64,000 bases of DNA from the NCBI GenBank assembly GCA_029945375.1, contig CM057066.1, forward strand, positions 124,001-188,000. The letters are read 5' to 3'. The notes beneath the pieces are model-generated. The model ran no database searches, was not told where the DNA came from, and saw only the letters and a program-made list of their open reading frames with translations. The position numbers were made by a program, and so were the translations under genes. This document shows, piece after piece, positions 37,474 to 64,000 of the stretch; positions within the stretch are counted from its first letter, which is position 1, and each line of letters opens with the position of its first letter. Source of the DNA: Agaricus subrufescens (Eukaryota > Basidiomycota > Agaricomycetes > Agaricales > Agaricaceae).

Positions 37474-38764
37474 GCGCGACAAGACTGTCTGAAGCCCAAA
37501 CTAGGGCCGCACAGCCACCGCCCAGAATAGCTCCCGCGTGCCATCCCGCCCATCTCGCCATCTCCACATCTCCCGTGCCCGCTTGTCGAGAACGCCAGGC
37601 CGCCCGCACCCGCCCCCCGCTGCAGCCAGCCCCGCCGCTGCGCTGCTCGACGCCCCCCAGCTGTACCCTGCGTATTAGCAGTGTCCCGGTCTTTGATGGC
37701 CAATCGCGTGTCAACTCAATTGACACTTCCGAGTCCTTTTCCTTCGGTCCGTAAAGGGACCTGATCGCTTCGTGGGAGGCACCGCACTCCTTGTCGACCT
37801 ATTTCAATCACAGACTCTTACAGCTCCCTGATTGATTGTTCCAGAGCGCATCAACATCATGGGAACGTCGACACCAGAACAACCGGCGAAAGCCGAGGCC
37901 CGGCCCCGACCTTCAGCCTTGTCGCATCTCCCCATGATCAGAGGCCCGCCATCCCGGGGGGAACCGGCTAGCGTGTGTACGTGCACAGTAGAACCCCTCT
38001 CGACCTATATCTGTCCGTGTACATCCAGGGTATGAGCTGTCAGGGGCCATGAATTTCCAGGGGATGGAGTAGAATATGAGCCTTCGCACTACTGACCGGC
38101 TAAAAACCTACAGGTTCACATCAATAATTCCTTTTAAAGCCAGCTCTCGAGGAAAGGCTCCTTATTGTACATCTGCATGCAAACGCGGTGTTCTGGGCCA
38201 TCGGTGTACCGATTAACCGTAACATCACTATGCGTTCGTCGGGCCCGGATCTAGGTATATTGTCGACACTGCCACCACCTCACCCAACTTGTATCTCACA
38301 AACCACATTATTCGGCTGGCATAATGGCCCATTTCTTCAACAAATCGGTCGCGGTATCACTCAGATAAAATCAGGGGACGTGCGCCATATTAGCTAACAG
38401 GCGTAGGGGTCTGCTGGGTAAGGGTTTGGGGCCATAGCGGACCTGTGACTCCTCGCCGGGCAACGCCAAGTTCTATGCGAATCGAGCCCCAGCCGCAGCT
38501 AGGCCCGGCAATTTCCTTGATATCAACGTTCCGAAGCTAGCTACCGTGTTGGTAAACGAAAATATCTTCTAGTACCCCTCTTGATCATGCACTGAAAGAT
38601 GAAGATAGGAACACGATCTGTATTGAAAAGAGCCATGCTCATATCTCGATTCAGCTATTGTCCACGCTCAACGGATTTGGGTTTCCGTTTCGAACAATAT
38701 ATAATCAGCTGTTCTCCTATACCTCCCTCAGATTTTTCACAGACGTAACCGCACCAGCCCTCTC
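37474..38764. other. Intergenic between two divergent F-box genes
   Basis: About 1.3 kb separating outward-facing F-box genes. A short frame at 37859-38035 (MGTSTPEQPAKAEARPRPSA) has protein-like composition but only about 58 codons and no motif. Confidence 0.45.
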
Positions 38765-40126
38765 ATGTCTTCACTCAACTTTGCATACTGCCCAAGAGAC
38801 GTCTTGCTTACCATCTTTTCCTTGACCTTGCCCCCCTCCGAGTTACTCAAGCAGAAGCATCTCGCACTCGCCAACCTACGTCTCGTTTGTTTCCACTGGA
38901 ATGCCGTCATCGTGTCCAACCCTATTTTCTGGTCGGCCATCGACATCCAAATTCCCTCCCAATATATACCCCACCCCGTTCTGACGTTATGGTTGGAACG
39001 CTCTGCGGATGCAGCCCTCGATATCTCTTTGAAGGATACCCCTCCCACATCTTGGACACTCTCGGAGATCACCCGTCGTACAGAATTGCTCTCAGCAATT
39101 CAACCCCACACACCTCACTGCAGGTCGCTGCAGTTGGACGTTTCCGCTGGTTTTTTACCTGCTTTCAGAAACTTTCTATTTTCCGATGCGCGTCGTCTCG
39201 AATATTTTTGCATCAATATGAAGGGCAACGCTGGCAATGATGTTCATCAAAATATGATTCACCAACTATCATCCCTTCCCCAGCTCCAGCACCTATCTTG
39301 CACCACTAATTATAGCCTATTCACGACATCTTTGTTTCTATACGCATCATTGCCCTGGTTCTCACGTCTCATGAATGTGGAGGTATCATGCCCGATATCT
39401 TCAGATGAGATGATCGAACTCCTGGCTCGATGCACCTCCGCCCATTCAATCACGTTGAACTATGTTCGATCATCATCTTCTCCCTCCACCACCCCGTCAC
39501 CATTGGAATCAAACCCTCCCATCGATCTTCCCAGCCTCCGGATCCTCAACATCACTCTCCACCCAGACGTCTATCAAACCCTATACCACAACTTCTCCTT
39601 TCCCAATCTCCAGATCCTAAAAATCCAAGGCCCCAACATATCAGATCTCTCATTCACACTAAATCACCTCTCCCCATCTCTCCAAATTCTAAAATTCCAT
39701 ATCCAACTTCACCACCGCATGCACACTCAACTATCCGAATTCTTGAAACACGAAAATATCCACAGTCTACCTATATTCGAGATCGAGTGTAGGGAGAATC
39801 AAATCTGGGAAGATTATGACGGATGGGAGGATTCGAATGGTATCGATGATCCAGGAGCATCAAGTAAAGCGTTTTGCAAATTGATTGATGAGTTAAATCG
39901 GCAGTTGAGGCTAGAAGGTAGTGGGATGCCTATTGACGGTAATTATTCTCGCGGTGATAAATTCATCAAGTACGAACATTTGGATCTGTGTCAGGGGTGT
40001 TTTATTGGTTGGGTTGATGAAAATTTGTATGTGAAATATTGGGAGGAATTTGGATGTTCGAAGGATAGGAATGTTTTTATGATTCAACCTTGTTTGTTTT
40101 CATCGCGCGACGGTATACCAGTATAA
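38765..40126 (+). CDS. F-box protein (Agaricomycete type), single exon
   Basis: An intronless frame of 453 residues starting MSSLNFAYCPRDVLLTIFSL. The N-terminus matches the basidiomycete F-box pattern: LP/CPRDVLLTIF, then LANLRLVCFHWNAVIVSNPI and FWSAIDIQIPSQY with SADAALDISL. After it come LRR-like segments (LPSLRILNITL, FPNLQILKIQG, SLQILKFHI). It likely works as an SCF adaptor. Base composition shifts from GC-moderate at the 5' end to AT-rich over the last ~250 bp, with no stop. It faces away from the F-box gene at 35471-37473; the two proteins are only distantly alike. Confidence 0.82.
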   Translation: MSSLNFAYCPRDVLLTIFSLTLPPSELLKQKHLALANLRLVCFHWNAVIVSNPIFWSAIDIQIPSQYIPHPVLTLWLERSADAALDISLKDTPPTSWTLSEITRRTELLSAIQPHTPHCRSLQLDVSAGFLPAFRNFLFSDARRLEYFCINMKGNAGNDVHQNMIHQLSSLPQLQHLSCTTNYSLFTTSLFLYASLPWFSRLMNVEVSCPISSDEMIELLARCTSAHSITLNYVRSSSSPSTTPSPLESNPPIDLPSLRILNITLHPDVYQTLYHNFSFPNLQILKIQGPNISDLSFTLNHLSPSLQILKFHIQLHHRMHTQLSEFLKHENIHSLPIFEIECRENQIWEDYDGWEDSNGIDDPGASSKAFCKLIDELNRQLRLEGSGMPIDGNYSRGDKFIKYEHLDLCQGCFIGWVDENLYVKYWEEFGCSKDRNVFMIQPCLFSSRDGIPV

Positions 40127-45032: not shown

Positions 45033-48000
45033 ATGGCCTCGGGGTCGAAACGTGAAAAATTCAAATCATTCATTCGCAAGCCTTTCTCCAGCAGCAAGAA
45101 GAAGGGTAAAGCTGGGTCTAATGGTCAGCATGCCTACTATTTGATTTTCTTTAGTTATAACCCGCTCATGTATCACTTAGATGTTAAGGACGATTTGCCG
45201 ACCACTTCACTACATACTAGTTCCTCTGATGCTGTCAAGATTGAATCGCCACTTAGCGCTACCGTACCCAAGATCGTTGTATCCGAGTCCTCACTTCAAG
45301 GTTACCAGAACTCTAATCGAACATTGGCGTAGCAAACTAACGTAGTATTCAGTTACCGGGGTTTCTCCCAGCCCAGGCAGCGGCTTTTTCACCAATGCAA
45401 GCCATTTCTCCGTGAACAATCCCGTGATGATGGACAATACTACGGTACATATTCACGGAGTAGCTGATAGAAGAAAAGGTACCGAAGTTGTTTGAAAATG
45501 TGGCATATATGACTGACCCGCCGCTGCAGCCATGGAACGACTCTCGGAGCACATCATACCTGGCATAGCTCATGATTCGTCCGCCCGTGATCCTCCCCCC
45601 AGATGTCACCCCGGTACCCGTGTCAAAATTAATGAATATGTCATTAATTGGTTCTATGATGAAAAAAAGGAAGAATTGCTGATCTGGGTATATGGTCCTG
45701 CTGGAGTTGGTAAATCCGCGATCATGCAGACTCTGGCGGAGAAGCTTGCCGAGTCTAAGCACCTTGGAGCTTCCGCATTTATCTCCCGACCAAACGGACG
45801 CAATAGCTCCCGGCAATTATTCACCACGATTGCTTACCAGCTTGCTGTGCACATCGAGGATTATTGTACCTTTATCATCGAGAAACTTGGTCGAGATCCT
45901 GAGCTTGTCAATAAAGGCATGGAGGAGCAATTCAAGAATTTCATTGTCGAACCTTTTGTTGAGAAGAAGATTGGAGTTGGCGGACACCCGTGGGGTATCA
46001 TACTGGATGGGCTTGACGAGCTCGACGAGCACCGATCACAAAGGGTGATCATTCGCCTCATCGCCAACTTTGTTCTCCAACATCCTGGCGTTCCCCTTCT
46101 TTGGGCCATAGCGAGCCGCCCAGAACCACATATTTGCGACACATTCGACGAGGAAAAAGTAGCGCGTGCACATTGGAAGAAGCACGTACCAGCAAATTCC
46201 AAGGAATCACGCTGGGACGTCGAGCACTTCCTGAGGGCCAGCCTGGAGAGAATTCAGAGAGAATTTCCACGAAGTGTACCGAAGAAATGGCCTAGCGAAA
46301 AGCAACTATCTACATTAGCTGCCGCCGCGTCTGGTTTGTTTGTGCTCGCTGACACAGCAATCCGGTTCATTGAGGATCCGCGATACGCCAACCCTACGAA
46401 GCGCCTCGACCAAGTTCTGTCCGCTCTTGATGGTGTCTCGGTCGCTGTTTCTCATAGTCGGCCGTTCGCCTCATTGGATGCTCTATATACGAGTATCCTG
46501 AATTTGATCCCATCTGACGTGTGGACCACTACAAAGCGCGTGCTTGGTACCCTACTGTACGCACAAGGAGAGGGGGAACGTCAAGTACTGAGGCGACTGG
46601 GGGCTACCTCAGTGGTGCTCGGTATTGATCTCGAGACCATTTATGCCTCAGTCGCTAGCTGCTACTCGTTGCTCGATATGTCTGATCCGAAAGATACCGC
46701 CTGGAAACCCACAACATTTTACCATGCTTCGTTTAGTGACTATCTGTTGGACGCTACTCGATCTGAAAGCTTTCATATCTGCATCCGAGATATCGAAGAT
46801 GAATTGCTCCGGTCGTCTCTCTACATTTGGCGGGACTTTCGAACAAGATGCCCTCCGGTGCCAGGTAGGTCCGATAATCCAAAGCAAAGTTTAGTGATGC
46901 TGACTCTTCAGGTTTGACATATGAAAGCAGGTGGAATCAATTCTTTTCAGCGTTAGTATCTTTTGATCAGTGAGTAGGAGAGTTTAGTTTCTAATTGGTA
47001 CTATACTAATACAGATCTGTTGGACAGAAATGCCTCCGCTCTCCGATATGAGCTAATGTGGTATATTCATGAAGCTTTATTCACTTTTCTGGTTGAAAAG
47101 CATGATCCGAAGAAAGAAGAACTATTCTTATCCGAAGGAGATAATGATCAGTGCCTTAGTTTACTGTGCCAGCTCGAGGATGCTACTGTTTGTGTGGGCT
47201 TCCCGGTGATTAAGAAACTCTCAGCGTTTCTACTTTGGTTATTTGATATATGGGAGGTGATTAATTTTCCGCCTATTGCAGCTCTCTTTGCTTTGGCTAA
47301 ACTATTTACAGGTTCATCGCCAGGAACTCGTATCAAGAGGTATTGTACAGGAGGGGTTGGGACATGTTCAATTCTCTCAGCTCGGAACATGTCCGGCCAG
47401 GCTACAAATCATACAAGACAAGTTAGTGTTGAAAGAACAGACGTATAAAGTGGTCAGTGATATTTTCTCGACTCGTCACTTTTCTAATTGCTGAGCTCTA
47501 GGATGACTTTGGAAAAATTCTGAGTTTCATATCTCAGCTAGAATCACGCTTTCCTCGACTTCCTATTTTAGCTTGTGGCAGTCCGGGAAAAGGCTGTCTG
47601 ATTTTCAGACACCAAGCTCAAGCACTAGACCTGGAGTACCATGATCTCGGTCCTTCCGTTCTTCAAATCAATGTCCCTGCCTGGATATATTTTGTTATCC
47701 CCTTTCCTCACTCCAACTTTTATCATAACGCTGAGGACTTCCTCAGAGCCAGCTTTGAGGCGATTCAAGCCAACTGTTCCTTGGCTATACCGCAAATTTG
47801 GCCCAGCAAAGAACAGTTTTCGAAACTTGCCGGTGCTGTCTCTCATCGGTCTGTATTTGCTACCATAGCCATACAGTTCATCGAGGATCTTCATTACGGA
47901 AGTCCTGTGGAATGCCTTGACCAACTTATCAGTCTCATAGATGAAGTTGATTTTTCTCATCATCGGCCACACATTTATGTTGACACTCTCTACGCCCATA

Positions 48001-49209
48001 TTCTTACTCATCATTCTTCTCATATGTGGCCAACCGCATACCAGGTGTTGGGTATGCTCCTCTATGGCATGAAATTGCCAGATAACTCCACTTTGAGGTC
48101 TCCCAAAGGTGTATCTGTGGTGTTTGGCATTGAGTTACCTACAATTTATGCCGCTCTCAGTGGCTTTTCTTTAATGGTCCAGATGCCTCCTGAAAATTTC
48201 TCATTAGGGCCAATGACTTTTCATCATACTTCATTCTGTGAATATTTGATAGACTCTTCTCGATCAGGCAAATTTTATGTTTCTCTGGAGGATGTGAATA
48301 GCCGCATACACAAGCAATTTATCAAAATCTGGGAAATATTTCAGGGATTTTCTTCTGGAATACCCGGCAAGTTCATTAAATGATATAAATTTATGACTTA
48401 TTATTGATGCTAGATTTGTAGAATGGGAATATTATCCCACCTGGAGCAAATTTTGTTCACAATATCATCACGGCACAAATTTATCAGATAATTCGCTGAT
48501 AGATGACTTCAATTTGAAGTTATTTCATGATACCCATAATGCGCTATTCTTATTCATTTCCCAGCATGATCTTGCCACTCTTGAATTCGAGCAGAATCAA
48601 GATCATGTTTTTCGCGTTCTTGGTCAACTCAATTTCATCAGTGTATGCTTGGGATTTTCGTGGTACCATCGCAGCGGGTTCATCATCTGGTTATTTGAAA
48701 TTTGGGATGTGAGTAAACATATTTGGAGTCGTGACTGCTTATCTACTTAGTCGCTAATTACAATTGCAGGCGTATAGAGAGGAACTCATGAATCACGGTG
48801 TTCTTCGTGAAATCCAGTTTCAAGACCTCCAATTTCACCACCTTGAGTGGTATAGGATATACTCTCATGTGTTACATTGTGCTGTAGGACCGAGAACACA
48901 AAAGTTCCTGGTGAATGTGGTAAGGAGCCATCTTTTGCGGATTATTTTAATTCCTGACGTTCAATTGTGCAGCCGAAATCAGCGGAAGAATTAGATGAAT
49001 ATATCTCAGGCCTTCAATTGTTCCAGAAACACCATCCACAACTTCAAGTCTTAATAGGCGGATGCCCGGGGGGATTGTTCGCAGTTTTTAGATATGAATA
49101 TACTGAGGACGATTTGAAAGAGCGGGTGCACCAGCCGGAGACTCGGAAGCAGAACGCCGGAGATCTAGGATATTATGTCCTTCCATATCCCGATACAGTG
49201 AACGACTAA
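45033..49209 (+). CDS. NACHT (STAND) NTPase with duplicated C-terminal half, copy 1
   Basis: Exons: 45033-45123, 45181-45300, 45353-45478, 45530-46864, 46912-46969, 47028-47256, 47312-47452, 47502-48370, 48414-48708, 48770-48919, 48973-49209; 1216 residues. Order: basic N-terminus (MASGSKREKFKSFIRKPFSS), variable Ser/Thr linker, conserved GFFTNASHFSVNNPVMMDN, then NACHT with Walker A GPAGVGKS (168-175), Walker B IILDGLDEL (about 269-277) and sensor ASRPEPH. The NACHT C-lobe (HFLRASLERIQ, WPSEKQLSTLAAAASG, FIEDPRYANP, FYHASFSDYL) ends near 557. After a helical linker the C-lobe repeats without a P-loop (701-989: DFLRASFEAIQ, WPSKEQFSKLAGAVSH, FIEDLHYGSP, FHHTSFCEYL). No WD40, ankyrin or TPR array is seen. 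NACHT proteins act as ATP-driven receptor switches, often in fungal self/non-self reactions; that role is inferred here. Confidence 0.85.
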
Positions 49210-50900
49210 TTTCTATTCAGCTGTTCTACCGTATGTATCACCCATTACATTGACGAATTTTTGATTATTGCTTTCGCTACCTCAGAACATAGGATTGCTA
49301 TATGCGCGTAACACTCAACTAAACTGAAGTGGTGGATGAGGGGGCGTGCCTTCAAAAATATCCAGCACGAATAGGGTTGGCCAGATGAGACACTGATTAT
49401 TAGAACGTATCACCGCGGGACCTTCATGATTGGCATTCTTTTTGTCTGTGTGTCGTATGTGTATGACCACGCCCTGTCCGTCGGTGCTCTGGGACCTAAC
49501 CTTCGAGATTGTGATTACAGATGCTCAGAAAAAGAAGGGATGACAAAGACTGTCACTTACCCTTTGGTTAGAGCTTTCGTCCGACTGTGCGAGTCAACTT
49601 CAAGGTAGCCTCGGTTAATACAACTTTAATTCCAACATTGGGTGCTACAATAGTTATAGAGAGTGAATCAGTTAGGGCCATAATTTAAGAGCCTTTAAAG
49701 AGCCGACGTACACAAGATATATAGATTCACAACAATGGACACCGGTTCGTGACGAATCACTTCCGTTTGAGTCCTGAAGCACTTGAGCTTCAAGGCCCGG
49801 TCCAACAATAGTAGCATCCGCTTTATTCTGATTGGTGAAAATGTCATTTGGAGCTCTCATCAATCTCGAGATGGCTCGCTGTGTGGCTGCGCATTTATTG
49901 ATATCGGGGATGATTGATATAAAGGATGACATTGATGATGGTATTACTGTTGTAGTTGTGATGATGCACAAGCGGCACTGATTGAGCGGATTGAGGAGCG
50001 GCTCGCGTCAAAGCAGTCATTCTATTGATTTTAATATTGAAAATATCATTTTCAGGCACAAGCACATGATGAGAATGATTAAACGTGAACGTAGTAACGG
50101 AAAATACATACAGTACTCTCTGCCCAGATACTTAATACGCCAGCCAAAGATGCTCTTCGACTGAATGAACCACCGCAGCAAGAGCTTGACCATTGGTAAG
50201 GTGATGTCCGTACAAAGCACAAATCGTGCATCTACAGCCAAATGCTGTCCGCTATCACTCTGCCGAGTTCATCGTCCAATCACTGGGCTGCTTCTAAGAG
50301 AATGGCTAGTCAAAATCAAGAAAAAAAGGGTGGGGAGAAGGTATTGACCTACCTTGTCGTTCCTGTCTGACGCTGGGAGAAGGGCCGCTCCGATCCATAT
50401 ACGACCTGGGCCAAGGCGGTGGTCTGGATGCGCCCGAAACTATGAGGGTTGATGACGGGCAGTCCTGTTCTTCCGCGAGGTGGTAGAAAACCGTGCGATC
50501 ACGCCGAGCGAAACCAGGGGACAGACGTTCCACTGGGGCGAAGGGAGGAAGCGTTTTTGTCAAAAGTGGACACGAGTTTGAGGAGGAGCAGAGGAGCGAG
50601 TCAACGCGGTTGACATGAGAGAGGCACAGAAACCCAATGTCGGGACAACTAGAAGCAGAACGCGGAACAGGATCTCGACAAAACACGCGCCGTTGATCAA
50701 TTGATCTGCCGAGTCCGGGTTTACTCACGCTCTGCATCTTCCATCTACCTTCGTCGGCTTTGTGAAGCCCCTTCATTGACGTGAGTAGTATCGAATTCAA
50801 GGTGGTGAACGATCACGACGGTCAGTTCTTGATGCGCGTTCGAAGTCTGCTCACTTATAGCCAAGTGCCAATCTAGCTCCGCTTGTGGTTCAATTCTACC
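49210..50900. other. Intergenic downstream of first NACHT gene
   Basis: No recognisable gene. A minus-strand frame at 50306-50800 (164 codons) is Ser/Pro/Arg-rich without motifs, and one at 49672-49971 (99 codons) likewise. Confidence 0.4.
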
Positions 50901-53900
50901 CCAGCCAGAAACAGTACTGCCTCGGCCATCTCTCTCAAGTCAGCCTTCGCCTTTCACTCAATGTCGAGCCCGCGGATGTTGATCTGTGGAACGTCGTCTC
51001 GAAGATTGTCCCGAATTTGCTTGCGTCCACCTAACTGTAGTCTCATCAACCCCAAGAGGCAAAGCTGGTATGTGCGACACAGTCTGCAATGTAGTTTGTT
51101 GTTAACTCGTCTAAGCAGGTAGTTCTACCTGTCTTCAGTCGAAGGCTACCGCTTGTATGCTAGAGCCTCGTCGCCTATACCCACTAAGCTCTATGCTTGT
51201 GCTGAATTACGCCTTATCTGTCTGGGTATGGAGTTGTGGAAGATCTGAACTCGTGACAACGTCCCTCAGCTTCACATGAAGAGAGATCTACGTGATTCTC
51301 CTCCGCCCCGGCGCAATGTTAGCAGCGGCAGGCAAAATCGTACATGACCCATGCTATATGCCTATGTTGGGTGACAATGATTCGAAATGAGGACGCACTA
51401 GGATAACCCGGCTTTGTTGCTGCATATGAATAGCCAGCCGTTTGGGTTGAAGAAGTTATGAGAGATTGGGATAAGTTGAAGTGACTATGGGTACGCCTGC
51501 TATTCTTCAATATCGTTGGATGCACAGAAAGGATAATCAAGTCAATTATTCTGTTTTAGAGAAACTTAGAGCGGCACTACGATCGAAACAACATCTTTGC
51601 ATCGCCGTTACCTATCAATATATGTATCACTGGAGGGCAATGAAGCTTGCACAAATATCTGGCTTGAACACAATTCATGGTTTCAAGTTCTCTGATCCCC
51701 GTCACCGCACTCCCGTGGTTGGCCCTTCCAGGAACCCGGCTATATCACGCATTTTCTTGGTTCTCAAGGCAGCGACTGCGCCAAACAAGCGCCCGTGGCC
51801 AGGCTGTATCACTTCGGAACCGAAACTGCGCTTTCGCTGGTATGTTGTAACCTTCACACTAATCTTCCTTGCTCACCATTGTTCTTGACACAGAATCGGA
51901 ACTATGAAGCTCAGTCACCTCGTCTCACCAGGCAACTAGGGCTGCGTAGTGAATCGTGGATCCCTAGGGAATCGGTGATCAATCTTGACTTTCTCAGTAC
52001 TTTAAATCACTACTGGAGTTTATTCTTTATATTCCGACTTCCCCTTGCACCACCCCTACATCCCAGACCGCTGTTTAACATGCAAACGAGCAACATATCT
52101 CTATGGCCTTCTATTCCCTCCGCGTTCACGTCAGTATCCGATTACACCTTTCCATCTCAGCGCACATGGTTCTCAACTCATACACCACGGCTACCCTCGT
52201 TTGACCTGCCCCCAAGTCTACCGTGTAGTCCATTTCCTCAGTATGTTATCGTCTTGTCATAGAGCTCGTATACTCACTGCCTTGCCATCTAGCGGGACCG
52301 GATACCCTTCCGCTGTGCAAGTCTGCAACGAATTAGCTATTGTCGTGATTCTGGCAACCCAACCCACCTGCTGAGCGTCCCTCTTCCCTGGTCCTTGACA
52401 ATCTGCAACCGCTATGTCACTCTGAACTGACTCAGGGCCTTCGGGTGTTTTGACTTTCCTCCATCGAAGTGTCCTAGCTCATCACGAGCGTTTTACTGAA
52501 AATACAATTCACATTCGATATGAGTCAAGCATCCTCTACATCTTGGTATGTGCGATCCAGTGTGAAGGATTGTTAGTTGCTAACTTGTCAGAACAGGTTT
52601 TTTCTTCTTCTAATTTTCGGTCCGACCCAACCACTACATGTAACATCTGCGTTATCTGTTGCCTACATTCCTCGCTCTACCCTTATGCCAAGCTGGAACT
52701 CGCATTTGGTTCTCTTCAAGGTGTGAGGTCATGGGAGACCCGGGACCAACGATAAAGATTTCTAACTCGATAGAAAGAGACGTTTGCTCGGGGGTTATCT
52801 TCAACGCGAACCACTGCCCGTGGTTCTCGAGGCAATCATGACATGACGTGACGCCATGCCGAGTTCTTAGTTTTGTTACTTCTGCTGGAAACCCGGTTCT
52901 CATCGGTAAGTTGTGATCTTCATCTTCATTTTTCTTGCTCAGCACTTTCTTCACTTCTAGAATTGAGCAGTCAATCCAGCAACTACTCCTGCTAGTCAAT
53001 GGAGGCCATATAGCCTATCCTCAGCGCCCGAAGTAGACGTTGGCATTGGAAAACACCACTTGGTTATGTTCCTTCGGCCCAAGCCTGCTCTGGCTCCCTC
53101 ACATTTCCGATTATGATTTCAACATGCAAACGGGCTCTCCATACCTCCATACACACGGTTCATCATTTCCCCCCGTCTGAATACTGATGTCTTGTCACTT
53201 ATCTCAATTGCCGACCAAATCAATCTCCTCGCATCAAGCATTCACTATTCTTGCCCATCACTCCCCCTCATATTCTCTCCTTTCGGCGATTGTCTACGTC
53301 TCTCATCTCTCCTCTCACAAATTCATAACCACTTCCTCGACTCCCTGAGCTCGCGTATGATAGCTTTATCCTGCTCTTGGCTGGGAGACCCGTGCCTCGA
53401 CGACTTCTTAACCCATTTTCGACAATCATACTGTCTTGCACTTGCCATATACGCCAATGGAGATCAAGATCTTTCCCTACAACTTGGTTGCTCATGCCAG
53501 TGCAGTTTTATCCGATGCATCTGTGAAGCGGAACGCCCGCGATCATGACAGCGGGGAAGTGGTGCGATACGGTTGGTGGCACTACCATCTACTGCACTGT
53601 GGGCAACTTTTCCGTCCAAGTCCGGTGATACAGGCCTGTAGAATGAGGAAGAAAATTGATATGTTCCTACAACGAGAATGCGTGACAGCTTTGTGACACT
53701 TCGACCCCGCCGTAACGGACCCACCTTCGACATTGCTCGGTCAACCTCTGCCCGCGTTGTTAGCTCAGGTTCGCTCGTACAAACGTATCTTAAGGCCTCT
53801 ATTTTTCCAGTGTGGTCCTTTTTTGGAGCGCGTGGTTGTACAACACGATTCATTACTCGAGATGGTAGCAGTCTTTAACCCTACGCCCGAGCACTGCAGC

Positions 53901-54612
53901 TAATGCTAAGAATGAATAGTGACGCCCACAACAAATACTCAATCAGACATTTCTCCCTGGAAGACCCTTTTCCTTTTGGTGATACCGAGTCTTGGCCCGG
54001 CACTAAACTTATTCCGAACTTCCCATGCGCTGCATCCTTACCCCTAATCCGTTCCCATTCCACCTCTTCTGCCATCCCTTGGATCAATAAGAATTGGTCG
54101 GACCCTAATCCTACATGTACATATGATCCTATCGCGTCTCAAAAGGCAGTCTTCTTTGAAGATGAGTGGCGCCGATCAGGCTAACTGGCAAGAACAGCCA
54201 TGGAAGCCCAATCAACGTGTTCAAATGTTGTTCGGCTAAAATACGACGGAACAAAGTTGTGATGTCGGGCAACCGAGTTAGCGTGTGCCTTTCCCATGAA
54301 GTATTCATCGAATCATGTAGTCACTTTATTTACAAACTAGACTATCGCGCATGATATTTTTAGGTATTCATCGTCTCCGATTAATGGAAAGGGAATGTTT
54401 GCGCAAAAGTTTTTGGAATTGCGAATGTGTCGCCAGTCACAGCACCTCCGGAGTTAGGTACGTGGGATCTATCACATATCATAGGCGCCGATCCGTCAAC
54501 GTGTCAGTGCACAGCCCGTAACACTACAGTACCTCTATACACTTCCCTCGTTCCATCGCTCCTACCAGACTTGTAAAGCACATTTTTTTGAATAATATCG
54601 CCGCGCATTTCT
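50901..54612. repeat. Mosaic of degenerate repeats upstream of second NACHT gene
   Basis: Several pieces repeat within the block or match others in the cluster. TGGTATGTGCGA followed ~40-50 bp later by an AG-ending stretch occurs at about 51070, 52545 and again at 60493, resembling an old intron. CCGTGGTT plus flanks occurs at 51713 and 52817. GTAnGTTGT followed by CTTCA..CTTGCTCA occurs at 51842 and 52908. A copy of the TTTTCCGTCCAAGTCCGG repeat lies at about 53500-53710. The best reading is overlapping decayed duplications of one or more former genes; I cannot name the ancestor. Confidence 0.4.
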
Positions 54613-57600
54613 ATGGCCCCGGGGTCGAAACGTGAAAAATTTAGGGCATTCATCCGGAGGCCTTTTTCCAGTGGCAAGAAGGGCAAGGCTGTGTCCAACG
54701 GTCAGTACAATGCCTTATTGCTTTTCTTTTCGGCTACGGCCCGTTCATTACTATCCAGACGTTCGCAATGATACACCGACAGGTCCTTCGGCTCCCTGTT
54801 CCTCCGATGTTGTTATGGATGAATCATCACCCGGGACCGATGCACTTAAGATCGTCATGCCCGGATCTCAAGCTCAAGGTCAAGAAGGCAGCAGTTAAAC
54901 ATTAGTGTTGCATACTTATCCACTGTTTAGGTACTGGAGTTCTATCAAGCCCAAGCGGCGGTTTTTTCGCCAATGCCAACCATTTCTCCGTGAATAATTC
55001 AGTAATGATGGACAACACTACAGTGAATATTCACGAAGCGAGTGATAGAAAGTGCAAAGGTACGGGAATTGTTACTTGATCATATTAACACTTTGATTAA
55101 TAGACCAATACAGCCATGGAACGACTCTCTGAGCACATGATTCACGGGGCGGCTCACGATTCTTCCGCTCGCAATCCTCCCCCGCGATGTCATCCGGGGA
55201 CTCGCATCAAAATCAACGAACATATTATTACTTGGTTCTACGACGACGAAAAGCAGGAACTGTTCATCTGGATATATGGTCCTGCTGGAGTCGGCAAATC
55301 GGCCATCATGCAAACTTTTGCAGAGAAGCTGGCCAAAGCTAAACAACTTGGGGCTTCCGTATTTATGTCCCGACCGAATGGACGCAATAAGTCTCAACAC
55401 CTCTTTATTACAATTGCGTATCAGCTTGCAGTACACATCGAGGACTACTGTACCTTCATCACCGAGAAGCTCAGTCAAGACCCTGAGCTAGTTGACAAGG
55501 GGATAGAGGAGCAGTTCAAGATCCTTATTGTTGAACCTTTTGTCGAGAGGGGGATTGGAGCTGGTGGACACCGATGGGGTATCATATTGGATGGACTCGA
55601 CGAACTCGACGAACACAGATCACACCGACTAATCATCCGTCTTATCGCCGACTTTGTCCTCCAGCACCCCGACGCTCCTCTCCTTTGGGCTATTGCGAGC
55701 CGCCCCGAGCCACACATTTGTGATACTTTTGACAACCAGAAAGTGGTTCCAGCATATTGGAAAGAGCTCGTGCCGGCAAATTCCAAGGAATCATGCCGCG
55801 ACGTTGAACATTTCTTGAAGGCTAGCCTAGAAAGAATTCAGGAAGATTTTCCACGAACTGTACCCAAGAAATGGCCTAGTGAAGAGCAATTCTCTGTCCT
55901 AGCCGCTGCTGCATCTGGCTTGTTCGTGCTCGCAGACACAGCGATCCGGTTCATCGAGGATCCTCGTTATGCCAACCCTGCCCAGCGCCTCAACCAAGTG
56001 TTGGCCGCTCTCAATGGCTCACCTGTCACTGCTTCCTGCGCTCAACCTTTCACTTCCTTGGATACCTTGTATACGAGTATCCTGGATTCAATCCCGCCTG
56101 ATGTATGGCCAACTACAAAACGGGTACTGGGCGTTCTGTTGTACGCTCAAGGGGAAGGCTGGAGATACATTCTGAAGCAGTTGGGAGCCATTTCTGTGAT
56201 CCTAAAGCTGGATCTGGGCACGATTTATGCCTCAATCAATGGTTGTTATTCACTGGTTAGCACGTCGGATCCCGAAGACGCGTACTGGAAGCCGGCGACC
56301 TTTTACCATGCTTCATTCAGTGATTACTTACTGGACGCAGCTCGATCCAAACACTTTTCTATCTCTATGCAAGATGTCGAAGACGACTTACTCCGGTCAT
56401 CTCTCGGCATTTGGCAGGATTTTCGGACAACCTGCCCTCAAACGCCAGGTAGGCTGGGATAATCTAGGTCATGCTTCGGTGATGCTGACGTTCCAGGCCT
56501 GACATATATAAACAAATGGGTGAAATACCTTTCGCCATTGATGTCGCCAGAAACGTGAGTAAGAGAGGTTGATTCGTTCACAATACTGACCTATCTGGTA
56601 GCACCATCCATGTCCACCAATTCGACCTAATGTGGTATATCCATGAAGCATTATTTACTATTCTAGTCGAAAAACATGGTTCGACGAACACAGAGCCCTT
56701 CTCATCTAAGGAAGATAAGGACCAACGTCTTGATTTATTGTGTCAGCTGGAGGACGCTACCATATGTGTAGGTTTCGATCGAATTGGGAGGTTGTCAGGG
56801 TTTTTGCTCTGGTTGTTCGAAATATGGGAGGTAGGTTATATTTGGGTTCTTCTACCTTACCTCACTAAGCTTCGGTACAGATTTACCATGAGGAACTTCT
56901 ATCAAGGGGGGTCATCCAAGACGTAGGATTGAAACAAGTTCAATTCGCTCAACTTGGAACCTGCCCAGCTCAAGTCAAGATTATCCAGGGCAAATCGATT
57001 TTAAAGGAATGGAGTTATACCACAGTGAGGACCAGTTTTTCTCTCGTATCGAGCCTGCTAATAAAGATTTCTAGAATGATTTTAGCAAAATTTTCCTTGT
57101 CATATCTCGGCTTGAATCATGCTTTCCACAACTCCCAGTCTTGGCTTGTGGAAGTCCGGGGAGCGGTTGTCTGGTTTTCAAATATCAACCTAACTCGTCG
57201 GATCTCGAATTCTATGATCTAGATGCCTCCTCCCTCCAAACCGAAGTTCCTATTTGGATATATTTTGCTATCCCATTCCCCCACTCCCACTTCTACCATG
57301 ATTCGGAACATTTTCTCAGGGCTAGCCTTCAGGCTATCCTGGTCAATTACCCACAGACTATCCCGATGCCTTGGCCTAGTCGAGAGCATTTTCAGAAGCT
57401 TGTGGGGGCTGTGTCTCGAAACTCCGTTTTTGCTGTTACGGCCATTCAATTTATCAAGGATTCTCACTATGGCAATCCCGCGGCCTGTCTTAACCAGCTT
57501 TTAACTCTCATTGATGATGTTGATTCTAGCGACGATCAACCATTCATCTATGTAGATGCTCTATACACCCACATTCTAAACTCTGTTTCTTCCGACCTAT

Positions 57601-58762
57601 GGCCTACTACACAACAGGTCTTGGGCCTTTTGCTCTATGGTATATCGACAAAAAGCTCAGCTCTGCAATCTCCCAAAGGCGTCTCTGTGGTTTTGGGCAT
57701 TGAGCTAAGTGTAGTTTATACTGCACTCAAAGGCTGTTCTATGGTCCAGATGCCTTCGGAGAATGCCTGTCTGGAAACAGTAACGTTTCATCATCATACC
57801 GCGTTTTATGAATATTTGGTGGACCCCACCCGATCGAAAAAGTTCCATACTTCCTTGCAGGATACGGATGAACACAGATTGAAACTGCTGATTAATATCT
57901 GGCTCGATTTCAAAGAGTTTGCTCGTAGAGCATCTAGTGCGTTCATATAATGATACGCTATATATTATACTCACCTGTTATAATTATATTTTCAGATGGG
58001 CAGTATGTCTCTATGTGGCACAGATATTGTTCGCAACATCACTCTGATGCCAATCGATCAGATGATCCACTCATAACTGATTTTAACTCAGATCTACGGT
58101 ACAATGCTCATGATGCCTCATTTCTTTTAATTTGGAAACATGACTCTGCTAGGCTCGAATCAAGACAGAATCGAGATTACGTTTTTCATATACTGCACCA
58201 ACTTGATTTTAATACTATATGTCTGGGCTTCTCGTGGTTTTATCGACATCAGTTCGTTATCTGGTTATATGAGATCTGGAGTGTGAGTGAATGATTTCGG
58301 CATTACTATTTTTCTAATCTAGATTATAGACATACGAAGAAGAGCTTACTAGTAGAGCTCTTCTTAACAAGGTCCCGCTTCGAGATCTTCAATTTGATTA
58401 CCTTGAGCTACATAGAGTATGCTCTCATGTAATGCTCTGTGGCGTAGGCTCCCAAAAGCAACTATTTATGGGATATCCTGTGAGATTTAATTGTTTTTGG
58501 GATATTTCGAATACCTGACATTGTATTTTAGCTAAGTTTACATGAGGAATTAGAAGAATATATATCAGGCCTTCAAGCTTTCCAGCAACGAAGACCACAA
58601 CTTCAGGTCTCGATAGGTGGACAGGGGGAGGGAAGGTTTGCACTTTTCGAATATGAATATACTGAAGACGATTTGAAGGAGAAACTACATCAGCCCAGAG
58701 AGAGGAGGCAGAGCGTAGGAGATAAAGGATATTATATCTTCGCATATCCCGACCGAGTGTAG
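54613..58762 (+). CDS. NACHT (STAND) NTPase with duplicated C-terminal half, copy 2
   Basis: Exons: 54613-54700, 54759-54878, 54931-55059, 55114-56448, 56497-56554, 56602-56830, 56881-57024, 57075-57936, 57996-58282, 58330-58479, 58532-58762; 1210 residues. Same order as copy 1: MAPGSKREKFRAFIRRPFSS, GFFANANHFSVNNSVMMDN, Walker A GPAGVGKS (168-175), Walker B IILDGLDEL, ASRPEPH, then the C-lobe, linker, and second C-lobe without a P-loop (EHFLRASLQAIL, WPSREHFQKLVGAVSR, FIKDSHYGNP). Exons 2, 4, 5, 6 and 10 are identical in length to copy 1 (120, 1335, 58, 229, 150 nt), showing duplication with introns. It ends with a motif (RPQLQVSIGGQGEGRFALFE) matching the strand that opens the second lobe (FPQLPVLACGSPGSGCLVFK). 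All frames are intact, so it is probably functional. Confidence 0.85.
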
Positions 58763-62071: not shown

Positions 62072-64000
62072 ATGGCCCCGGGGTCAAAACGCAAGGCATC
62101 TATTTGCAAGTCTTTTTCTAGCAGGAAGAAGGGCAAGACAGCATCTCGGGGTCTGTGCTCAATCGTTTACCTTCGCGTCATGTTCCGCTCATGTCCAATT
62201 CAGATATTCACGACGATTCGCCAGCTACTCTTCCGGCTACTGGTTCTTCTGATGCTGTCGTGGACGCCGGATCAGCTAGTGCTAGTGAAATTAGGACTGT
62301 CGTGCACGAAACTTCACTTCAAGGTTACAAGAACTTTCAATGAGTATTGGAATCATATTACTGACAAAGAGCTTAGCTCCTGGAATTCAATCGAGCTCGG
62401 GTGGTGGATTTTTCACCAATGCCAGCCACTTCTCTGTGAACAATCCTGTAATGATGGACAATCCGACAGTCCATATTAACGAAGTGAGCGATAGAAAAAG
62501 CAAAGGTACGAGAATCATTACTGGGGTATACCGTGTTTGAAATTGATGGAGTACCGCAGCTATGGAATTACTTTTCGCGCACAGTATTCAGGGTGCAGCG
62601 CACGATTCTTCCGCTCGCGACCCTCCCCCCAGATGTCATCCGGATACTCGCCTCAAAATCAACGAACATATTATAACCTGGTTCTACGACGAAGAGAAGA
62701 AGGAGTTGCTCATCTGGGTCTACGGCCCCGCTGGTGTAGGTAAATCTGCAATTATGCAGACCCTTGCAGACAAGCTCGCCGATTCAAAACACCTTGGGGC
62801 CTCCACATTTGTGTCCCGGCCTAACGGACGCAATAACTCCCGACAGCTCTTCGTCACCATCGCCTACCAGCTTGCGGTGCACATCGAGGACTACTGCACA
62901 TTTGTCACTGAGAAACTTTCCCGAGATCCTGCGCTCGTCACTAAAGGGATGGAAGAGCAGTTCAAGACCTTCATTGTAGAACCTTTTGTGGAGAAGAAGA
63001 TTGGAGCTGGCGGACACCCGTGGGCTATCATATTGGATGGACTCGATGAGCTCAACGAACATCGATCACAGCGGATGATCCTCCGCCTCATCACTGACTT
63101 TGTTGTCCAACATCCTGATGTTCCTCTCCTTTGGCTCATCGCGAGTCGCCCAGAGCCACATATAGTCGACACGTTCGACGAAGAGAATGTAGTGCCTGCA
63201 CATTTGAAAAAGTATGTTCCGGCAAACTCGAAGGAATCCTGTCAAGACGTCGAGCGCTTTTTGAGGGCCAGCTTACAGAGAATTCAGAGAGACTTTCCAC
63301 GGACTGTACCGAAGAAATGGCCCGACGAGGAGCAAGTTTCGCAGCTAGCTGCCGCTGCATCTGGCTTGTTTGTACTTGCTGATACGGCAATTCGGTTTAT
63401 CGAGGATCCACGATATGCCAACCCTGCCAATCGCCTCAGCCGGGTATTGTCTGCTCTCAATGGCCTTTCCGTCCCTGACTCCAATACTCAGCCATTAACG
63501 CATTTGGATGCCCTGTATACCAGCATTTTGAGTTCGATTCCATCTGACGTATGGCCAACTACGAAACGGGTGCTTGGCGCTCTGTTGTACACCCAAAGAG
63601 AGGGGATGAAACATGTTCTCAAGCAATTGAGAGCTATGTCTCTGTTGCTTCATCTGGACCTAACCACTGTTTATGCCTCAGTCAACGACTGCTACTCGTT
63701 ACTTAACCTCCCTGACCCCAAAAACGCCCACTGGAGGCCCGCAGCTTTCTATCATGCTTCATTTGGTGACTACCTGCTCGACTCAACTCGATCCGGACAC
63801 TATTTTATCTCGCTCCAGGATGTTGAAGATGACTTGTTTCAGTCGTCCCTAAATATCTGGCAGGACTTTCAGGTAAAATACCCTCCAACATCAGGTAGGC
63901 TAGAATTGTCAATGTCATAATTCAAAGGTAATGACTATTCAGGCCTGTCATATGACAACAGATGGATTCGATACCTTTCATCATCAATGTCATTCGAGCT
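62072..64000 (+). CDS. NACHT (STAND) NTPase, copy 3, cut by the window end
   Basis: Exons seen: 62072-62150, 62204-62323, 62377-62505, 62560-63894, 63943 to the window end. N-terminus MAPGSKRKASICKSFSSRKK, then DIHDDSPATLPATGSSDAVV, GFFTNASHFSVNNPVMMDN, Walker A GPAGVGKS, Walker B IILDGLDEL (with NEHRSQR after it), ASRPEPH, and the full first C-lobe. Exons 2, 3 and 4 (120, 129, 1335 nt) equal those of copy 2. The last visible exon begins GLSYDNRWIRYLSSSM, matching GLTYINKWVKYLSPLM of copy 2, so the second half is expected beyond 64000. No disabling change is visible in the available part. Confidence 0.85.

What the first reader, a model, noticed from the sequence alone, without database searches (positions are those of the whole stretch)
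45033..58762. NACHT NTPases whose C-terminal half is duplicated in tandem and replaces the usual repeat array
In both complete genes the segment from the sensor strand through the NACHT C-lobe recurs after a linker, about 390 residues later, but without Walker A or B. Pairs in copy 1: HFLRASLERIQ / DFLRASFEAIQ; WPSEKQLSTLAAAASG / WPSKEQFSKLAGAVSH; FIEDPRYANP / FIEDLHYGSP; FYHASFSDYLLDATRS / FHHTSFCEYLIDSSRS. Fungal NLR-like proteins normally end in WD40, ankyrin or TPR repeats that sense ligands. A pseudo-NTPase half in that place would be a different design: it might act as an internal dimer partner, a lid, or a sensor. That mechanism is inference; the repeat itself is read directly.
Basis: partly seen in the sequence, partly recalled or inferred. 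Interest (0 to 1): 0.88.

Follow-up and report, generated by a model that had tools for sequence, protein, structure and literature searches.

The report
Fungal receptors with doubled sensor half
A mushroom-family fungus carries about 28 immune-type receptor genes whose whole back half (a control arm plus a fast-changing probable sensing part) has been copied once in tandem inside the gene, giving one motor with two arm-and-sensor units.

Summary
Both genes have 11 exons (1212 and 1210 aa). The repeated unit is the whole C-terminal half (~430 aa): a STAND "arm" (A; helical domain 1 + winged helix), then a helical domain (B) and an alpha/beta tail (T). The "linker" is copy 1 of B+T. The sensor strand is not repeated: what looks like it is tail T1, fused in one open exon to A2 where single-unit genes stop. 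The second half has no NTPase core; its arm keeps the fold residues but lost an HD1 glycine in 25 of 25 models. The architecture occurs at 28 loci of this genome (25 intact models) and arose once, before the family radiated. Single-unit paralogs and Agaricus bisporus relatives carry one arm and one tail, and no WD40/ANK/TPR was found in them, so no repeat array was replaced. B evolves fastest in both copies. I read it as a one-motor, two-sensor NLR-like receptor. Architecture and history are shown; the two-sensor function is inferred. No duplicated relative turned up in the protein database searched. New variant of a known kind.

The parts
45033..45478 (+). Gene A exons 1-3 (with introns): ~112-aa leader ending in GFFTNASHFSVNNPVMMDN motif
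   Evidence: gene model; motif exon matches upstream of family members
45532..46194 (+). Gene A NACHT nucleotide-binding core (aa 114-334), Walker A GPAGVGKS, Walker B IILDGLDE
   Evidence: Pfam NPHP3_N/NACHT; motifs
46195..46863 (+). Gene A arm copy 1, A1 (aa 335-557)
46864..47452 (+). Gene A B1 (exons 5-7, aa 558-700), fast-evolving domain copy 1
47502..47714 (+). Gene A tail copy 1, T1 (aa 701-771), no stop codon, fused to A2 in exon 8
47715..48365 (+). Gene A arm copy 2, A2 (aa 772-988), no nucleotide-binding lobe
48366..48919 (+). Gene A B2 (exons 9-10)
48973..49209 (+). Gene A tail copy 2, T2 (exon 11) and stop
54613..55059 (+). Gene B exons 1-3, leader with motif
55116..55778 (+). Gene B NACHT core (aa 114-334)
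55779..56447 (+). Gene B arm A1
56448..57024 (+). Gene B B1 (exons 5-7)
57075..57287 (+). Gene B T1
57288..57935 (+). Gene B arm A2
57936..58479 (+). Gene B B2 (exons 9-10)
58532..58762 (+). Gene B T2 and stop
62072..64000 (+). Third member of the family, cut by the window edge (complete in L046)

Best explanation
These are NLR-like STAND NTPases of an Agaricaceae NACHT family whose ordinary form is leader - NACHT - arm (HD1+winged helix, A) - C-terminal domain (helical B, then alpha/beta tail T). One internal tandem duplication, from just before the arm to just before the stop codon, gave NACHT-A1-B1-T1-A2-B2-T2 in the ancestor of a family that then spread to about 28 loci. Proposed working: A1 remains the arm that closes on the nucleotide pocket; B1-T1 and B2-T2 are two independently diversifying recognition heads; A2 no longer meets a nucleotide and serves as the scaffold that carries the second head. 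Binding at either head, or at both, would release A1 and let the NACHT cores oligomerise and cluster the N-terminal leader motifs. Shown: architecture, single origin, absence of the core and loss of the HD1 glycine in copy 2, fast evolution of B in both copies. Inferred: that B-T is the ligand-binding part, the two-head logic, and the leader as signal.
Confidence: 0.6

Rival explanations
1. One reading: the second half is an internal partner of the NTPase (a built-in dimer mate, lid or clamp), and sensing happens elsewhere.
For: A2 keeps the arm fold and the winged-helix His in 21 of 25, so it could still dock on a NACHT core, its own or a neighbour's.
Against: The HD1 glycine that A1 (24/25) and the single-unit arms (19/19) keep is lost in 25 of 25 A2. 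dN/dS of A2 exceeds that of A1 in 9 of 9 pairs (dN in 7 of 9), and half of the added stretch is the fast-evolving B-T, not expected of a docking partner.
Confidence: 0.15
2. The extra half is a passenger: an accident kept in a fast-multiplying gene family without a role.
For: A2, B and T have higher dN/dS than the NACHT core and A1; 6 of 31 loci are broken, cut or incomplete, 3 of them second halves with no NACHT exon near.
Against: 25 of 31 loci keep an open frame over both halves; several A2 core residues are 25/25; median dN/dS of A2 is 0.46 and of B2 0.61; both halves persisted through the split of the C1 and C10 types.
Confidence: 0.12
3. The added half is an integrated decoy or bait: a copied receptor part that a foreign factor attacks, its disturbance being the signal.
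For: Fusion of duplicated target domains to NLRs as baits is described for plants (PMC12258605, passage); A2 has lost an HD1 residue but kept its fold residues.
Against: The end that stays close to single-unit relatives is T2 and the diverged part is the middle, T1-A2 (T2 closer than T1 in 25 of 25 genes), whereas a bait should resemble its target. No attacker is known.
Confidence: 0.1
4. Two genes, or a gene-model artefact, divided near exon 7/8.
For: No transcripts were available.
Against: Exon 8 is one open frame across T1 and A2 in 24 of 24 rows with no stop where single-unit genes L062-L064 stop; a copy-2 exon follows a NACHT exon at 28 loci.
Confidence: 0.03

Closest known systems
Single-unit NACHT proteins of Agaricus bisporus, e.g. 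P0001 (AGABI2DRAFT_119611, 845 aa)
   Same: Leader, NACHT, arm A, B and tail T with the same C-terminal sequence style (VLI.G...F..F.YEYTEDD ... YY..PYPD), no repeat family in Pfam
   Different: One A-B-T unit instead of two
Fungal NACHT NLRs with WD40/ANK/TPR (HET-E, NWD2 type; recalled)
   Same: NACHT core, arm with F-x-H-x-S-F in the winged-helix (HETHS) motif, short N-terminal leader, clustered and expanded genes
   Different: No repeat array found; the C-terminal region is an arm plus a domain without a Pfam match, and is doubled
Apaf-1, CED-4, ZAR1, NRC, Avs3 (STAND NTPases with solved structures)
   Same: NBD-HD1-WHD fold in the P0001 model (Orc/Cdc6 AAA+ proteins rank first there); A2 model matches Apaf-1 244-474
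   Different: None of these, as recalled, carries a second HD1-WHD without an NBD
Two-NACHT gene models of Leucocoprinus and relatives (P0005, P0007, P0010 and others)
   Same: More than one arm per annotated protein
   Different: Two arms come with two NACHT cores; they look like whole-gene tandem copies or fused neighbours, not a copied half

Membership tests
NACHT/STAND NTPase | Walker A and Walker B of the NACHT core | tested here: met
   Walker A G-x4-GK[ST] in 23 of 25 models (GVSKS in L035, L036), Walker B in 25 of 25; Pfam NACHT above cut-off in gene A
NACHT/STAND NTPase | HD1 and winged-helix arm after the core | tested here: met
Tripartite fungal NLR with superstructure-forming repeats | C-terminal WD40, ANK, TPR, HEAT or LRR repeats | tested here: not met
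   No Pfam repeat family in gene A at E<=1 or in six relatives at E<=0.01. It is therefore filed as NLR-like STAND NTPase, not as a repeat-bearing NLR
Fungal NLR | N-terminal effector domain or amyloid signalling motif | tested here: inconclusive
   No Pfam domain in the leader of gene A; a conserved ~20-residue motif lies there but was not scored against the NLR05/22 motif models of PMC9815663
NAIP-like (N-NACHT) subtype | FhHxxhQE[YF]hxA in the winged helix (definition seen in PMC12258605) | tested here: not met
   A1 of gene A reads FYHASFSDYLLDA: the QE pair is absent
Single-unit A-B-T family of Agaricaceae | One arm and one B-T after the NACHT core | tested here: not met
   Two of each; it is related to that family as a duplicated form
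Immune or incompatibility receptor | Ligand-triggered oligomerisation and cell-death output | not testable with these tools
   No functional data

The most novel reading that the evidence does not exclude
A previously undescribed receptor plan: one NTPase motor governed by two arm-and-sensor modules in series, the second arm being nucleotide-blind, so that a single chain can read two ligands (or two faces of one) as an AND/OR gate, diversified over ~28 paralogs in one genome.
Probability: 0.3. Interest if true: 0.75.

Novelty: new variant of a known kind. Interest (0 to 1): 0.52.

Why it matters
NLR-like receptors are usually described as varying by swapping or extending a repeat array. Here diversity was gained by copying the whole regulatory-plus-recognition half once and then letting the two copies part: the arm next to the motor stayed closer to single-unit relatives, the second arm lost an HD1 residue, and the B domains kept changing in both. 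Because 25 intact paralogs, single-unit paralogs and single-unit relatives in Agaricus exist side by side, the question of what a second sensor module does to a STAND switch becomes directly testable by removing halves in laboratory fungi.

Tried and rejected
Two-gene reading: rejected on the open exon 8. Repeat begins at the sensor strand: rejected by profiles. Duplicated relatives elsewhere: a database search with full protein A scored the 7998 candidates sharing most words and gave 243 hits, of which 120 are listed; none of the 120 has one NACHT and two A-B-T. Second-half queries from A (4773 candidates) and from L052 (7992 candidates) gave none at E<=1e-3. These searches need shared exact words, and single-unit relatives were not found by them either, so distant duplicated forms could be missed; the fungal coverage is unknown. 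Proteins with two arms also carry two NACHT cores (P0005, P0007 and others) except P0073 (arm, NACHT, arm), whose first arm looks like the cut end of a neighbour. Fold of B-T: no clear sequence match among solved structures (best E 0.46; A2 profile best 0.025, humpback-2); B-T was not folded alone, so absence of a known fold is not shown. Partner protein with the leader motif: 37 matches, mainly at family loci, the rest weak; no clear partner. A strict regular expression for the motif found 10 of 25 leaders; it was too narrow and is not used as a count. Foldseek itself gave no match at E<=0.001 for the exon-8 model; the Apaf-1 match rests on the VIA re-alignment.

Rows dropped: 6 of 31 duplicated loci were left out of trees and rates: L038 and L039 with stops; L045, cut inside A2, where the missing end matches ~7 kb further on (C8:964267-964548); L050, L057, L058 without a NACHT exon near. 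L044 was left out of the exon-8 alignment (extra intron), giving 24 rows. The pair L031/L032 was left out of the pooled windows.

Literature: searches (search listings) showed no title or abstract start describing this architecture; only passages were read, of PMC4986451, PMC9815663 and PMC12258605.
Full report
What is there. Gene A (45033-49209) and gene B (54613-58762) each have 11 exons with the same phase order and give 1212 and 1210 aa; given only protein A, a spliced aligner written here rebuilt protein B letter for letter. They are identical at 770 of 1207 aligned residues. In A, Pfam sees NPHP3_N/NACHT and related P-loop families between 147 and 321 and nothing behind them at E<=1. A self-alignment puts A 342-745 on 776-1183 (137/396 identical; score 547, best of 200 shuffles 69) and B 316-745 on 751-1182 (156/419; 584 against 55). 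So the repeat is real, but its period is about 434 residues and it runs to the end of the protein.

What the unit is. Three parts repeat in the same order. A is the arm behind the NACHT core, B a helical domain, T a short alpha/beta tail. Profile against profile over 25 paralogs: A1/A2 E 1.5e-69, B1/B2 9.7e-18, T1/T2 6.5e-8, whole halves 3.5e-101 over 422 columns; the sensor region against T1 and the NACHT core against the second half both give probability 0.06%. Introns agree between copies: exon 4|5 and 8|9 (phase 1) and exon 6|7 and 9|10 (phase 0) fall on the same columns of the alignment, exon 7|8 and 10|11 (phase 0) beside and inside one gap. Only copy 1 has the phase-2 intron between exons 5 and 6; the best-scoring models of the single-unit genes L062-L064 lack it too. 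Exon 8 runs from T1 straight into A2 with no stop in 24 of 24 rows; L062-L064 stop right after T. The event thus joined the last codons of the tail to the start of the arm.

How widespread. The window lies in a 44.65-Mb genome. Copy-2 exons (exon-8 query, 43-100% identity) occur at 31 places, 28 of them within 2.5 kb of a NACHT exon; conversely 28 of 31 NACHT exons at 60% identity or more to gene A have one. 25 give intact full models, 22 with exactly the same ten intron phases. They form two groups: one on C10, C4, C5 and C8, one on C1. Trees put all A1 on one branch (100/99), all A2 on another (100/100) and 19 single-unit arms on a third side (99/90); B-T gives the same picture with 8 singles. 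One duplication before the groups split is the simplest account.

Relatives elsewhere. The protein search gave 243 hits; the 120 listed are mostly from Agaricus, Leucocoprinus, Leucoagaricus and Macrolepiota, so the host is probably an Agaricaceae fungus (inference). The best, P0001 of Agaricus bisporus, is a single-unit NACHT-A-B-T protein; among the 120 none has one NACHT and two A-B-T. In many of the 120 the B and T profiles score weakly or not at all, so the C-terminus varies across the wider family. Second-half queries found nothing. None of the 149 scored WD40 matches of this genome lies within -6 to +8 kb of 149 NACHT places; of 25 ankyrin matches, two lie 7.5-7.8 kb behind one NACHT place and one 1.2 kb in front of another (lists are lower bounds). 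Two arm-only matches not in that list, C1:5953681 and C25:1099, have WD40 matches 3-5 kb to their 5' side.

What happened to the copies. Arms: A1 is on average 40% identical to single-unit arms, A2 34%. Tails: T2 is 37% identical to single-unit tails, T1 23%; T2 is nearer in 25 of 25 genes, while B shows no clear preference (copy 2 nearer in 14 of 25). The two outer ends stayed nearer to the single-unit form and the joint T1-A2 diverged. Among columns nearly fixed in A1 and singles, A2 keeps a fold core (W-P, F392, D429, W444, F514, L518, W546, all 25/25) but has lost the glycine of the SGLF motif in 25 of 25 (A1 24/25, singles 19/19); the winged-helix histidine is 21/25 in A2 and 25/25 in A1. 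That these two positions lie in HD1 and the winged helix and face the nucleotide in STAND proteins is recalled, not tested.

Rates. In nine disjoint pairs the median dN/dS is NACHT 0.17, A1 0.22, T2 0.45, A2 0.46, T1 0.55, B1 0.59, B2 0.61 (B from eight pairs, dS being saturated in L031/L032); dN of B exceeds that of its own arm in 9 of 9 pairs in both copies. Pooled over eight pairs, the two 30-codon windows above 1 (683-712: 1.06; 1103-1132: 1.26) lie around the border of B and T in the two copies and overlap by about half after shifting. This fits recognition surfaces in both; positive selection is reported for C-terminal repeat domains of other fungal NLRs (Dyrka 2014, passage), but relaxed constraint is not excluded here.

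How it most likely works. NACHT and A1 form the switch, B1-T1 and B2-T2 the two heads, A2 a scaffold. The leader carries a short motif (GFFTNASHFSVNNPVMMDN in A) and no Pfam domain; by its place and style it may be one of the amyloid-like motifs reported for Agaricomycetes (PMC9815663, passages), which was not tested. The claim about heads and scaffold is inference; the architecture and its history are shown.

Noticed in passing
window 62072-64000: A third, edge-cut member of the same family; complete in L046.
   Followed up: yes
L035 (C4:35808-41065) and L036 (C10:285289-290546): Nearly identical genes on two contigs with Walker A GVSKS instead of GVGKS, possibly NTP-binding-dead.
   Followed up: partly
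L067 (C7:2133400-2135400); also C2:3946940-3948122 and C14:62069-63251: Three places with identical match scores hold an L046-like broken gene: leader motif and NACHT start, residues ~216-290 missing, later stops (only C7 was read).
   Followed up: partly
C8:964267-964548 and L045 (C8:969719-974715): One member of the family is cut inside A2; the rest of the exon matches about 7 kb further on, same strand, as if by an insertion.
   Followed up: no
C1:1400151-1412746 and C2:828115-840046; C1:5948507-5954334 and C25:1099-6926: NACHT and WD40 matches with identical scores in mirror order on two contigs, suggesting duplicated segments or assembly duplicates.
   Followed up: no
L050, L057, L058: Second halves without a NACHT exon within 2.5 kb: remnants of the duplicated form.
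   Followed up: partly
L066 (C6:3065338-3068400): A single-unit paralog with a second tail-like match ~650 bases further on, perhaps a separate, smaller tail duplication.
   Followed up: no
window 38705-40126 +: F-box-like protein with a leucine-rich-repeat match below its cut-off.
   Followed up: no
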